DNA of 52,754 bases from Patescibacteria group bacterium (GTDB lineage: Bacteria > Patescibacteriota > Minisyncoccia > Minisyncoccales > RBG-13-36-15): the NCBI GenBank assembly GCA_018609195.1, contig JAHCSE010000003.1:1-52754 (forward strand), written 5' to 3'. The stretch's first letter is position 1. Each line of letters begins with the position of its first letter. The notes below the pieces were generated by a model. It saw nothing but the letters and a program-made list of their open reading frames with translations, was not told the DNA's origin and searched no databases. Made by a program: the position numbers and the translations under genes. Shown piece after piece: positions 5,977-51,978 of the stretch.

Positions 5977-7725
5977 CTATCTGCCTTCCAATACCTCAAT
6001 TCTTTGTTTTAATACTTCATTATCTGCTTTTAATTCTTTTACTGCTTCAACGAGTACAGCTGTCAGTCTGCCATAATCAACTGCCTTATAGCTTTCATCT
6101 CCCCATGTGGTTACGAGTTCTGGAAACACGGTTTCTATCTCTTGAGCAATCACGCCAATCTCTCTATGTCCTGTAGAGCGGTCAAGCGACGCGTAAAGCT
6201 CATTCCAATCAAATGACACCCCTCTAATCTTTTCTAATTTCTCAAGCGCATTTGTAATTTGGGCTACATTGGTCTTGAATCTCACATCCGACGAAACAGG
6301 GAAACTTGAAGCATGAGCTGATCCAGCAACGTCTAATTTAAAGCCGGGGCTCCTCGTGCCGATGCCGACGTTACCTGATGTATCGATCGTGAGTCGATAT
6401 GCCGCAGCGTTAGCGTCCTGAATTGAGAATTTACCCGCATGGCCAGACGTCTCCCCAAAACTCAGGAATTGCCACATACGCCCTCCGAGCGACGTGTTGG
6501 AAATACCGACAATAGAAAATGAAGGACTAGGGCTTATAAAATCCGCAACCCGAAAGTTCGGGCTTATGAACTGAGAAGTCCCTAATGCTCTGAGAAAAAC
6601 GCCTCGATTTTCATCCGCATCAAATAATTCAAGTATTCCGTGACCGCTATTTGATGTTCGTATTTTCGCCCGAATATTATCTGCATCTCCAGAATCAAGT
6701 AGCGTAATTCCTCCGGAAGTCCCGCGTCCAGTAGAAACACTCAGCTTACTTGTAGGACTCGTCGTCCCGATGCCGACTAAATCTCCAAAGACATGTCTGG
6801 TACCATCCTCTGTTTGAATATGTAATGCTCCTTTTCCTGCAGTACCGCCACGATCAGCTACGTATAAGTTAATCGTATCTGGAGACACGCCTGGCGGAAT
6901 AATTTCGGTATCCCCCATACGGATAAATTTTTGGCCACTCTCGGTACCCGTAAACATGTTGATACCCCCATGAGCACTAACGATTAGTGTTTTATCAAAG
7001 GCATCACCATAAATCTCAAACGGAATATCGCCATCCCAATCCACAAACGCTAAATCACTTGAGTTCTGGGCTTTCATCGTCCAGGTCTTTCCTCCACCTT
7101 GACCTTCAAGTATTACCGAAGCACCCCATCCGTTAGAAAGGATAGAAAGGTTCATGGGGGCGTCGTTTCGTTCAAATGTAACATTACCTCCAAACACGTT
7201 GAGTTTCTCGCTAGGACTCAACATCCCGATGCCGACGTTGCCTGCGGTGTCGATTCTCATCTCTTCAGTAAAGGTACCAGCAGCTGTAATATCAGAAGCA
7301 GAGTAACGACCAAAACGTAATGGTGTAACGCTGTTGTGAGTTAATGCTCCCTCAATACCAGAATATTTCATTAACCCAACTCTCTTGGCACCGAATGCAT
7401 CAACCACAAAACCTTCTCCTTCTTGGTTTACGAAGACGGAGCCATTTACTTCTAATTTTTCACCCGGACTCGGCGTCCCGATGCCGACGTTGCCCTTGTC
7501 AACAATTAATCCTATAGTTGCACCCCCAGTATTAAGAATTAATCCTGCCTCTTTTGATTGGCCAAGAGGACCAACATTTAAAGGAGCAGGGACATTTCCA
7601 CCAGGCGGAGCCACAGTTGGTTCAGTGAAGGCAAAAATATACCAGACAAAGAGAAAACTGATGACGATTAATCCTAATGTGAGGGTGATTGCTTTGTAAT
7701 TTGGTTTTTGAAAAAATTGAGTCAT
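5977..7725 (-). CDS. Tail-fibre-like surface protein with C-terminal S74 chaperone domain
   Basis: 582-residue exported protein. The N-terminal helix (about 11-32) and FTEPTVAPPGGNVPAPLNVG match the neighbouring fibre gene. Four shaft motifs follow (VGIGTPSP, VGIGMLSP, VGIGTTSP, VGIGTRSP). The last about 105 residues are a Peptidase_S74 / intramolecular chaperone domain: SSDVRFKTN, which carries the Ser and Lys positions of the autocleavage dyad, then GVIAQEIETVFPELV, YKAVDYGRL and a terminal coiled coil (ELKADNEVLKQRIEVLEGR). In phage fibres and endosialidases this domain drives trimerisation and is then cleaved off. A trimeric, self-processed surface fibre is therefore likely. Partner or target is unknown. 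Confidence 0.85.
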   Translation of the reverse strand: MTQFFQKPNYKAITLTLGLIVISFLFVWYIFAFTEPTVAPPGGNVPAPLNVGPLGQSKEAGLILNTGGATIGLIVDKGNVGIGTPSPGEKLEVNGSVFVNQEGEGFVVDAFGAKRVGLMKYSGIEGALTHNSVTPLRFGRYSASDITAAGTFTEEMRIDTAGNVGIGMLSPSEKLNVFGGNVTFERNDAPMNLSILSNGWGASVILEGQGGGKTWTMKAQNSSDLAFVDWDGDIPFEIYGDAFDKTLIVSAHGGINMFTGTESGQKFIRMGDTEIIPPGVSPDTINLYVADRGGTAGKGALHIQTEDGTRHVFGDLVGIGTTSPTSKLSVSTGRGTSGGITLLDSGDADNIRAKIRTSNSGHGILELFDADENRGVFLRALGTSQFISPNFRVADFISPSPSFSIVGISNTSLGGRMWQFLSFGETSGHAGKFSIQDANAAAYRLTIDTSGNVGIGTRSPGFKLDVAGSAHASSFPVSSDVRFKTNVAQITNALEKLEKIRGVSFDWNELYASLDRSTGHREIGVIAQEIETVFPELVTTWGDESYKAVDYGRLTAVLVEAVKELKADNEVLKQRIEVLEGR

Positions 7726-8129: not shown

Positions 8130-8241
8130 TTATTTTATTAACCTTTGACTCGATTGTTTGTTAATCATATCTCAATAAAGAAAATAATAAAATAGTAAGA
8201 CGACAATTTTTAATTATCTTATTTTACTTTAGTAAGCAGAA

Positions 8242-8437
8242 AGTCGCTCATCCTTTTCCAGCCTTGGGCTGGCGCTCCCGAGCACATAACGGTTTATGTG
8301 CTCGGTCGCTTCGGACTCGCTCCCCAGAAACCTCTCGGTTTCTGGCGTTCGCTCCACTCACTGTTTTCCTATACGGGAAAACACCCAGTTTTCCCGACCC
8401 TTTTCTGCTTTTTTGTTAATATTAACAAAAAAGGTAG
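8242..8437 (-). repeat. Structured palindromic element, family 1, copy B
   Basis: About 195 bp made of consecutive hairpins: 8278-8305 (12-bp perfect stem), 8324-8345 (CCAGAAACC/GGTTTCTGG), 8374-8396 (CGGGAAAAC/GTTTTCCCG) and about 8411-8434 (TTTTTTGTTAAT/ATTAACAAAAAA). It shares order, loops and linkers with copies at 49921-50041, 50098-50225 and 50273-50440. It separates two segments that are adjacent at 5752-5827. On the minus strand it is preceded by TTGACA-N17-TATTAA, so it may be transcribed. No credible protein is encoded; together with the terminator it fills the 8130-8498 gap. Confidence 0.75.
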
Positions 8438-8449
8438 CTGTCAACAACA

Positions 8450-49912: not shown

Positions 49913-49920
49913 TATCTTTA

Positions 49921-50041
49921 TAAAATAGTTGTTCGCTCCGCTCACGAACTATTTTTTAGAAACCCACGGTTTCTAACGCTCTCCTCCGAAGAGCTGTTTT
50001 CCTACACGGGAGGAAACGCCAATGCGTTTCCCCCGACCCCC
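49921..50041 (-). repeat. Structured palindromic element, family 1, copy D1
   Basis: Minus orientation: GGAAACGC/GCGTTTCC (50012-50031) in place of the CGGGAAAAC/GTTTTCCCG hairpin, then TAGGAAAACAG and TTAGAAACC/GGTTTCTAA (49956-49976). An AATAGTT/CGAACTATT repeat closes the end. Part of the 49820-50487 non-coding stretch, which also holds the PBP promoter, copies D2 and C, and two further hairpins (50045-50066 and 50233-50264). Confidence 0.7.
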
Positions 50042-50097
50042 ACTTAAGAGGACTTCCGTCCTCTTACGTCACTCGTTATCACTCGTTCCTATCTCCT

Positions 50098-50225
50098 CGA
50101 CGGGGGAAACGCCTTTTCACCCCGTATAGGAAAATAGGAGTGAGGAGCCGTAAGGCGACGAATGACGTAAGAAACCGAGGGTTTCTTAAGCTGAGGGTCG
50201 GGGTGAAAAGATACCTCCCGACCCC
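50098..50225 (+). repeat. Structured palindromic element, family 1, copy D2 (inverted relative to D1)
   Basis: Plus orientation: CCCGTATAGGAAAA, then TAAGAAACC/GGTTTCTTA (50168-50188) and GGGTCGGG/CCCGACCC (50195-50224). TTACGTCA (50064-50071) and TGACGTAA (50163-50170) join D1 and D2 into one large inverted repeat. Confidence 0.65.
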
Positions 50226-50232
50226 TCCTGTG

Positions 50233-50264
50233 ATTATATCGGAACTTGAAACTTCCGATATAAT
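50233..50264. repeat. Perfect 12-bp hairpin
   Basis: ATTATATCGGAA (50233-50244) and TTCCGATATAAT (50253-50264), 8-base loop. Confidence 0.8.
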
Positions 50265-50272
50265 AAAAAAAA

Positions 50273-50440
50273 GACCTTGTTAAAGGTCGCTCATCCTCTT
50301 CCAGCCTTCGGCTGGCGCTCACCTTGTTCGCTTCGGATTCACTCCTTAAAACCCCTCGGTTTTAATATTTCCGCCACGGGAAAACACCCAGTTTTCCCGC
50401 CCCTTTTCTGCTCTTTTTGCTAATTTAAAATTAGCAAAAA
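50273..50440 (-). repeat. Structured palindromic element, family 1, copy C, with its own terminator-like end
   Basis: Minus orientation: CTTTTTGCTAATT/AATTAGCAAAAAG, CGGGAAAAC/GTTTTCCCG (50377-50399), TTAAAACC/GGTTTTAA (50346-50365), CCAGCC/GGCTGG near 50302. It ends with GACCTT-TAAC-AAGGTC (50273-50288) and nine T. The closing hairpin plus T-run looks like an intrinsic terminator, so a structured small RNA is possible. Confidence 0.65.
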
Positions 50441-50454
50441 GGTCTTTAAAAAGT

Positions 50455-51210: not shown

Positions 51211-51978
51211 CTATTTATAACAATTAGGTGAACTCAAAAACTCTTCGAATTTTTCTTTTGTATTGTTTTTTAGGCCGTAGATTTCATGAAATTCTATATG
51301 GCATTTTTTACAAAGGGTAACCCCATTTTCAATCGAGGTTCGTAATTCAGAAAAATCAGCAAAATTATGAAGATGATGCGCAACTATTTTGCCTCCCCTC
51401 TCTCCACATTTTTGACAGGTCCAATTACCCCGCGCAAAAACTGACTCTCTCCATAACTTATATTCTATACTCTTTCTGATTTTTTCATTTTTAGAAATGC
51501 GTCCCCCTTTCCAATTTGGATGGTTTTCTCCTCTCTGGTTAAAGTGCGGCTTCCCTTTCTTTGCCTTGCTTATTTTTCTTCTTATTTCTATTCTTTTGGC
51601 TGGGTTCTTATTTCCTTTATGCTGCCCTTTTTTAAATTCTGTCTTGGGCGAACGACGCCTCCCCTTGAGGAGTTTACTTAATTTCTTTTTTGTTTCTTCT
51701 GGCATTTCTTTTCCTTTATTCCAAGCTTCGCGTCCCTTAAGAGCTTTGCTTAATTTTCTTTTTGTCTCTATAGATATCTCTTTTCCTTTACTCCAGGGAA
51801 TACTCCCTTTTTTAAACCACCCTTTACTTACTTTTTTTCTCCAATCCTCGGAATGTCTTCTTCCCAAATTTATTTTATTTCCCTTTTTAAATTCAGTTTT
51901 AGGAGAATAATGTTTTCCTTTCTTGATTTCGCTCATTTTCCTTTTAGCTTCTTCTGAGTGTTTGGATCCTTTTATCAT
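51211..51978 (-). CDS. HNH endonuclease with NUMOD3-like DNA-binding repeats
   Basis: 255 residues. N-terminal half: repeated (S/P)EETKxKLSKxxKGR / SPKTEFKKG units typical of NUMOD3-type nuclease-associated modules in homing endonucleases. C-terminal HNH domain: WTCQKCGERGG, VAHHLHNFAD, ENGVTLCKKCHIEFHEIYG, with the zinc Cys pairs and catalytic His. It sits between ruvC and yebC, genes that are adjacent in many bacteria, consistent with insertion of a free-standing homing-type gene. Not part of an intron as far as can be seen. Confidence 0.85.
   Translation of the reverse strand: MIKGSKHSEEAKRKMSEIKKGKHYSPKTEFKKGNKINLGRRHSEDWRKKVSKGWFKKGSIPWSKGKEISIETKRKLSKALKGREAWNKGKEMPEETKKKLSKLLKGRRRSPKTEFKKGQHKGNKNPAKRIEIRRKISKAKKGKPHFNQRGENHPNWKGGRISKNEKIRKSIEYKLWRESVFARGNWTCQKCGERGGKIVAHHLHNFADFSELRTSIENGVTLCKKCHIEFHEIYGLKNNTKEKFEEFLSSPNCYK

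What the first reader, a model, noticed from the sequence alone, without database searches (positions are those of the whole stretch)
49921..50440. Family of structured palindromic elements with compensatory stem changes (four copies)
Copies at 8242-8437, 49921-50041, 50098-50225 and 50273-50440 share order and linkers (GGG-CGGG hairpin, then TAGGAAAA or a variant, then a GAAACC/GGTTTC-type hairpin). The second hairpin has stem CCAGAAACC/GGTTTCTGG, TTAAAACC/GGTTTTAA, TTAGAAACC/GGTTTCTAA and TAAGAAACC/GGTTTCTTA in the four copies: sequence changes, pairing is kept. The first hairpin changes from GGGAAAAC/GTTTTCCC to GGAAACGC/GCGTTTCC. A shared loop and paired changes suggest selection on structure, as in a mobile RNA-structured repeat or a small RNA family. 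No protein is encoded.
Basis: seen in the sequence. Interest (0 to 1): 0.85.

Follow-up and report, generated by a model that had tools for sequence, protein, structure and literature searches.

The report
Hairpin elements that replace gene tails
Small stretches of DNA that code for no protein, fold into hairpins and sit dozens of times in some tiny uncultured bacteria have inserted near the ends of essential genes and tRNA genes, bringing a substitute gene ending and pushing the original ending aside, and no enzyme known to move DNA this way was found to go with them.

Summary
The family is real and much larger than the four copies seen. A covariance model finds 25 matches in the window's genome and matches in 23 of 60 related genomes, with strong paired changes. 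The third window copy is inverted. The unexpected part is the flanks. In 27 of 81 copies examined (3 of 589 control pairings) the element ends exactly where a second copy of a neighbouring gene's 3' end begins: fusA, gap, pgk, rpsI, rpmJ, rpsJ, polX, tRNA genes and others. The complete gene carries the inserted tail; in fusA the displaced tail sits at the native junction. The two tails differ mostly synonymously (126 versus 40 codons; neutral expectation 137 nonsynonymous), so one was probably acquired from another lineage. A 14-18 nt inverted target copy often abuts the element. TnpB, IS110, Y1 and reverse transcriptase are absent from the window's genome. Near-absence of G-U pairs suggests DNA rather than RNA hairpins. 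Best reading: an ORF-less mobile hairpin element that integrates at fixed points in conserved genes and supplies the gene's new end. The machinery is unknown. The window's own copies lack the tail duplication.

The parts
8243..8407 (+). Element copy 1, from the 5' GTCGCTC to ..CCCGACCCTTTTCTG; core 8322-8407
   Evidence: covariance model 93.5 bits; RNA fold z -7.2 for 8225-8445
8278..8306 (.). Nested palindrome module GAGCACATAA/TTATGTGCTC inside copy 1
   Evidence: inverted repeat I2; occurs alone elsewhere
8408..8433 (.). Perfect hairpin directly after the 3' end of copy 1, in the slot where other copies carry an inverted copy of their target
49954..50046 (+). Element copy 2 core
   Evidence: 68.7 bits
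50097..50190 (-). Element copy 3 core, inverted relative to its neighbours
   Evidence: 48.3 bits
50166..50231 (+). Weak partial element match overlapping copy 3
   Evidence: 22.2 bits, E 0.0046
50024..50210 (.). Compound of copy 2 end plus inverted copy 3, 91% identical to a compound beside mltG (G000:C13:4200-4377)
50344..50410 (+). Element copy 4 core; 5' part from about 50286
   Evidence: 42.6 bits; 5' part 92% identical to copy 1 over 38 nt
50413..50441 (.). Hairpin directly after the 3' end of copy 4
   Evidence: inverted repeat I4, 14 bp

Best explanation
An ORF-less mobile hairpin element of Patescibacteria (Parcubacteria side). Shown: (1) a conserved scaffold E, 5' GTCGCTC - optional hairpins - H1 - variable hairpin - CTGTTTTCCTACACGGG - H2 - CCCGACCCCTTTCTG. 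(2) In about a third of the copies examined, E lies at a fixed point x near the 3' end of a conserved protein or tRNA gene. Read along the gene the order is: gene, complete tail x..stop, an inverted copy of the first 14-18 nt from x, E reversed, then a second copy of the tail starting at x. (3) In fusA the second tail is at the native junction, so the tail in the complete gene is the inserted one. (4) The two tails differ mostly synonymously. Inferred: the unit [replacement tail + inverted target copy + E] enters at x as DNA. The hairpins act as single-stranded or cruciform DNA sites for a host-encoded or unidentified recombinase supplied in trans. Carrying the gene's end keeps an essential gene working. 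Units already linked to a gene then spread between species by ordinary homologous recombination in the flanking gene. I put the architecture and mobility at about 0.85 and the specific machinery (DNA-level recombinase in trans) at about 0.35.
For: 25 own matches and 148 matches in 23 of 60 related genomes. Position-locked tail duplication in 27 of 81 copies against 3 of 589 control pairings above the same line. Inverted target copy p<=0.01 in 38 of 82 copies. 126 synonymous against 40 nonsynonymous codon differences in 17 tail pairs; neutral mean 137, minimum 119 of 1000. The sequence after the displaced fusA tail matches that after single-tail fusA in G001 (score 68, best of 500 shuffles 23). 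Empty gap sites in 13 of 15 printed genomes. Recurrent use of the same codon region of gap, fusA and a family-5 solute-binding protein gene in different families. tRNA targets, with tandem arrays of identical units in G023. Low G-U share.
Against: No mobilising enzyme identified. Tyrosine recombinases are present almost everywhere and do not track copy number. 54 of 81 copies show no retained duplication above the line, and the copies in the window show none. No circular or single-stranded intermediate was seen. For gap, tail identity to relatives does not say which tail is foreign. No GG motif at the target beyond control.
Confidence: 0.6

Rival explanations
1. RNA-guided homing. E plus the 14-18 nt target copy is a guide RNA for a nuclease supplied in trans; it cuts the empty gene at x and the break is repaired from an E-bearing copy.
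For: The target copy abuts the scaffold and matches gene sequence at the insertion point. Different E subtypes sit at the same codon in different families.
Against: TnpB/Cas12f-type zinc ribbon absent from the window's genome and present in 2 of 12 genomes with at least four copies; IS110 in 0 of 60. The target copy mostly matches the carried tail at least as well as the native one, which would invite self-cutting. G-U pairs are rare. IscB and other HNH nucleases were not searched.
Confidence: 0.15
2. Passive spread only. E marks ordinary homologous recombination of gene 3' ends taken up from relatives, with no element-specific step.
For: Foreign-looking tails; the spacer of the gap unit is similar between G000 and G020 although the E subtypes differ.
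Against: Does not explain the exact junction at x, the inverted target copy, or near-identical E at different tRNA genes of one genome, G023.
Confidence: 0.15
3. Target-primed reverse transcription of a gene-E read-through transcript.
For: The geometry fits: E begins at a 3' end of the antisense strand at x, and E reversed lies in the 3' untranslated region of the gene.
Against: Reverse transcriptase absent from G000 and present in 2 of 12 genomes with at least four copies.
Confidence: 0.04
4. Not mobile now: a 3' UTR element such as a terminator or mRNA stabiliser kept by selection.
For: E reversed is mostly co-directional with its neighbours: both neighbours antisense to E in 45 of 94 copies.
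Against: Patchy presence, empty sites and tail duplications; I saw no consistent poly-T after the hairpins in the sequences read.
Confidence: 0.06

Closest known systems
Fungal mitochondrial mORFs carrying foreign C-termini (Glomus atp6, atp9, cox2, nad3; Allomyces atp6), PMC3630166
   Same: A foreign 3' end is fused to the resident gene and the native end is displaced downstream; the tails differ far more in DNA than in protein (passages read).
   Different: Those elements encode a LAGLIDADG or GIY-YIG endonuclease. This one has no ORF, is bacterial, and occurs at many genes per genome.
Integrative elements that use tRNA or conserved-gene 3' ends (ICEs), PMC3715440
   Same: The target is the end of a conserved gene and the element restores it (passage read).
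   Different: No integrase or cargo, a few hundred bp, many different targets per genome, plus an inverted target copy.
Double-hairpin / repetitive hairpin-forming elements of mitochondria, PMC2800124
   Same: ORF-less, hairpin-built, patchy, thought mobile (passages read).
   Different: That paper says the Allomyces elements lack flanking duplications; here long duplications of gene tails are frequent.
REP elements and other bacterial palindromic repeats, PMC3733652 (search listing and start of abstract only)
   Same: Short palindromic multi-copy DNA.
   Different: REPs are 20-40 bp; Y1 transposase, the REP-associated enzyme (recalled), is absent from G000 and G020.

Membership tests
Rfam RNA families | match at or above the gathering score | tested here: not met
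   only tRNAs in the window; nothing credible on the element in six loci
REP / RAYT system | Y1 (PF01797) transposase in the genome | tested here: not met
   none in G000, G020 or G023; no correlation with copy number
OMEGA / TnpB | TnpB-type nuclease encoded | tested here: not met
   PF07282 in 6 of 60 genomes, none in G000, G002, G006, G018, G020, G023 or G031
OMEGA / IscB | IscB encoded | not tested
IS110 bridge RNA elements | DEDD transposase | tested here: not met
   0 of 60 genomes
Group II introns / retroelements | reverse transcriptase available | tested here: not met
   PF00078 absent from G000, G001, G002, G006 and G020
Tyrosine-recombinase integrative elements | element restores the 3' end of its target gene | tested here: met
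   27 of 81 copies
Tyrosine-recombinase integrative elements | encodes its integrase | tested here: not met
   no recurrent non-housekeeping ORF stood out beside the element in 47 named loci
mORF (endonuclease-borne foreign C-terminus) | foreign C-terminus with displaced native end | tested here: met
   anatomy and codon counts, native junction in fusA
mORF (endonuclease-borne foreign C-terminus) | endonuclease ORF inside the element | tested here: not met
   tail-to-element distances of 36-124 nt leave no room
MITE of a DNA transposon | terminal inverted repeats with short direct target duplication | tested here: not met
   ends GTCGCTC and CTTTCTG are not complementary; duplications cover whole gene tails
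TIGR arrays | tandem dual-spacer repeat array beside a Tas protein | tested here: inconclusive
   copies are mostly dispersed and G023 tandem units are identical, not spacer-varied; Tas proteins not searched

The most novel reading that the evidence does not exclude
A natural programmable 'cleave and rescue' element: one hairpin scaffold is re-aimed to dozens of essential genes by a short target-matched sequence, cuts or opens the empty allele, and installs itself with a recoded gene end.
Probability: 0.15. Interest if true: 0.95.

Novelty: new variant of a known kind. Interest (0 to 1): 0.78.

Why it matters
If right, bacteria with very small genomes carry a protein-free mobile element that lives in the ends of essential genes and rewrites them while moving between families. 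It would be a bacterial counterpart of the fungal mitochondrial gene-tail invaders, but with no nuclease of its own. It would make host recombination on DNA hairpins directly testable, explain some mosaic gene ends in Patescibacteria, and perhaps offer a compact way to insert DNA at fixed genomic sites.

Tried and rejected
Mobilising enzymes by co-occurrence over 60 genomes: Y1, TnpB (57), reverse transcriptase (58), IS110 (59) and tyrosine recombinases (56). None tracks copy number (IS110 is absent throughout). An autonomous relative or partner gene beside the element was sought among ORFs of 47 named loci: the recurring families looked like housekeeping genes by their sequence starts. The HNH/NUMOD3 ORF near the window copies has no homolog in the other fetched loci. 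A GG motif at the insertion point looked promising by eye but is not above control: 18 of 27 against 14 of 27. A Xer/dif reading of the GAGCACATAA..TTATGTGCTC hairpin was dropped because its centre varies in length (my reading; dif recalled). Viral, phage and plasmid collections: no match. My first direct-repeat scoring was too permissive and was replaced. The split into two end types was seen by eye; an automatic class test failed (one search put all 82 in one class). A first synonymous count that ran into element sequence was replaced by one limited to the tails, for which I chose 17 of the 22 pairs and set their limits by hand. The fusA identities were out of register and were redone. Literature searches for this element; no paper in those listings describes it (open-licence PMC papers only).

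Full report
What was checked. A blastn search of the window's own genome (G000, 854 kb in 39 contigs) with the copy at 8225-8445 gave 25 matching pieces and with 49915-50240 gave 28. A covariance model R1 from 22 hand-picked cores gave 25 matches in G000 at E<=0.01 and matches in 23 of 60 related genomes (22 of 56 genera), 148 in all, from 1 to 27 per genome (sum). The model's own members match by construction. A named-genome scan for an exact core pattern gave 47 stretches, all labelled Patescibacteria/Parcubacteria groups or unnamed 'bacterium' bins. No match was found in viral contigs (exact pattern), phage records or plasmid records (blastn).

Anatomy. Read 5' to 3', the element E starts with GTCGCTC (variants ATCGC.., TCGATC..), has zero to two variable hairpins, then H1 (for example TTAGAAACCC-CGGTTTCTAA), a variable hairpin or a CGCTTCGCTC-type linker, the box CTGTTTTCCTACACGGG, H2 with an ACCCA-type loop, and CCCGACCCCTTTCTG. 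On 72 distinct aligned copies 95.2% of cells pair; 14 of 18 pairs have changes on both sides and 148 cells do, against 37 in shuffles and at most 29 when partners are slid. That alignment was fitted to the structure and so leans towards it; the MAFFT alignment of 22 copies gives the same picture, with 51 such cells against 18. G-U pairs are 11 of about 1160 paired cells (my sum over), against 178 of 2051 in 88 tRNAs folded from the same loci. I read this as selection on DNA hairpins rather than RNA; it is an inference. In a whole-core fold, which predicts its own pairs, the share is 71 of 2168 on E and 110 of 2240 on the other strand.

The flanks. For flank work I took 95 copies: 24 of the 25 in G000 (the weakest, 22.2 bits, was left out) and 71 of the 124 reported in relatives (the better-scoring ones and those with loci); 94 are distinct. 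One search examined the 81 that had the CCG.CC box and enough left flank (counted). It asked whether sequence starting within 4 nt of a possible 5' boundary of the element recurs on the other side. 27 of 81 scored above 26, the 99% point of 589 mismatched pairings; a few pairings exceeded that line too: the top values were 28, 50, 58 and 76, so 3 of 589 clearly, 4 counting the 28. The three high ones may be true homologs from different genomes but were not checked. The repeated sequence is mostly the 3' end of a neighbouring gene. Genes identified by family search: EF-G and type I GAPDH; phosphoglycerate kinase, ribosomal S9, L33, GyrB, MltG, PolX and an S41 peptidase; ribosomal S7, S10, L36 and a family-5 solute-binding protein. 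Several of these (L33, GyrB, MltG, S7) show the duplication or 62 rather than in the 27. Targets with no family match: L138 and L120. tRNA genes: His and Arg (L131), Glu (L132), Asn (L093, on the line) and His (L104).

Order of parts. Along the gene: gene body, tail from x to the stop, a spacer, an inverted copy of the first 14-18 nt from x, E reversed, then a second tail from x. The inverted copy is significant in 38 of 82 copies at p<=0.01 and 27 at p<=0.001. It matches the other side of E, where the second tail begins, in 16 of 81 at p<=0.01, nearly always directly at the element's 5' end. The distance from x to E ranges from 36 to 124 nt, with 9 of 27 at 109-114. I have no explanation for that cluster.

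Which tail is which. In fusA of G000 the sequence after the second tail aligns with the sequence after the single fusA tail of G001 (score 68, best of 500 shuffles 23) and with G003 (40 against 26), so the second tail is at the native junction. In gap the second tail is followed by a terminator-like hairpin with a T run in G000; 13 of the 15 genomes printed have one tail only, and the two with E are G000 and G020 (15 of the 36 genomes with a gap match were printed). Tail identities to relatives do not decide the source: in gap both tails are about equally far from G002 (49 and 51 of 60); in fusA the displaced tail is slightly nearer to G001 and G003 (63 against 60 of 78). Over 17 coding tail pairs there are 126 synonymous and 40 nonsynonymous codon differences, where unconstrained change would give about 137 nonsynonymous (minimum 119 in 1000 simulations). 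Several of these pairs were first noticed through protein similarity, which biases the count. Still, fusA in G000 is 69% identical in DNA with 3 amino-acid changes in 26 codons. The simplest account is that one tail came from another lineage.

Recurrence and recency. E sits in the same codon region of gap in G000 and G020, of fusA in G000, G002 and G024, and of the solute-binding protein gene in G000 and G057, with a third matching peptide in G020. GyrB in G000 and a matching peptide in G014 look alike too, by my reading. The E cores at such shared sites are mostly not each other's closest relatives, yet the spacers of the two gap units are similar (0 of 5000 shuffles). In G023, E cores with identical bit scores sit at tRNA-Arg and tRNA-Glu, each in tandem units, and a slightly different one at tRNA-His.

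Machinery. Y1 transposase, TnpB, reverse transcriptase and IS110 transposase are all absent from G000, and none tracks copy number over 60 genomes. Tyrosine recombinases occur in 54 of 60, mostly one per genome; G000, G001, G002 and G020 have two, while G006 and G018, rich in the element, have one, and none was detected in G031. A host recombinase acting on folded DNA is therefore possible but unproven.

Against my reading. Two thirds of the copies examined keep no detectable duplication, and the window's copies show none. Many of these have a plain hairpin after E instead. No intermediate was observed. The conclusion that the element is mobile rests on distribution, empty sites and duplication, not on a witnessed event.

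Comparison. The closest anatomy is that of fungal mitochondrial mORFs with foreign C-termini (PMC3630166, passages) and of integrative elements that restore gene 3' ends (PMC3715440, passages); the closest in being ORF-less hairpins are mitochondrial hairpin elements (PMC2800124, passages). It differs from each in the ways listed under Closest known systems and Membership tests. TIGR-Tas (PMC12045711, passages) occurs in Patescibacteria but has a different layout.

Noticed in passing
window 51211-51978 (-): Free-standing NUMOD3 + HNH homing-endonuclease-like ORF between ruvC and yebC, about 770 nt from the three copies at 49.9-50.4 kb; no homolog in the other fetched loci.
   Followed up: partly
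window 8278-8306; also G017, G021, G041, G048, G051: The palindrome GAGCACATAA-N-TTATGTGCTC nested in copy 1 occurs alone, also in genomes with no match to the element model.
   Followed up: partly
window 50024-50210 and G000:C13:4200-4377: The inverted pair of elements is repeated (91% identity) beside mltG, where it is flanked by the tail duplication.
   Followed up: partly
L095, L096, L097, L107, L114, L124, L134, L152, L157: A second end type..CCTTCCGAT(N)TGGG.. or CTCTCCGAT.., replaces CTTTCTG; its sites often look like promoter or intergenic sequence (by eye).
   Followed up: no
L131 and L132 (G023): Tandem arrays of identical 163-nt and 193-nt units at tRNA-Arg and tRNA-Glu, one ending in a truncated element.
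   Followed up: no
table: The distance from the insertion point to the element clusters at 109-114 nt in 9 of 27 copies, with other values from 36 to 124.
   Followed up: no
window 5977-7725 (-): 582-aa ORF with a Peptidase_S74 (endosialidase chaperone) domain.
   Followed up: no
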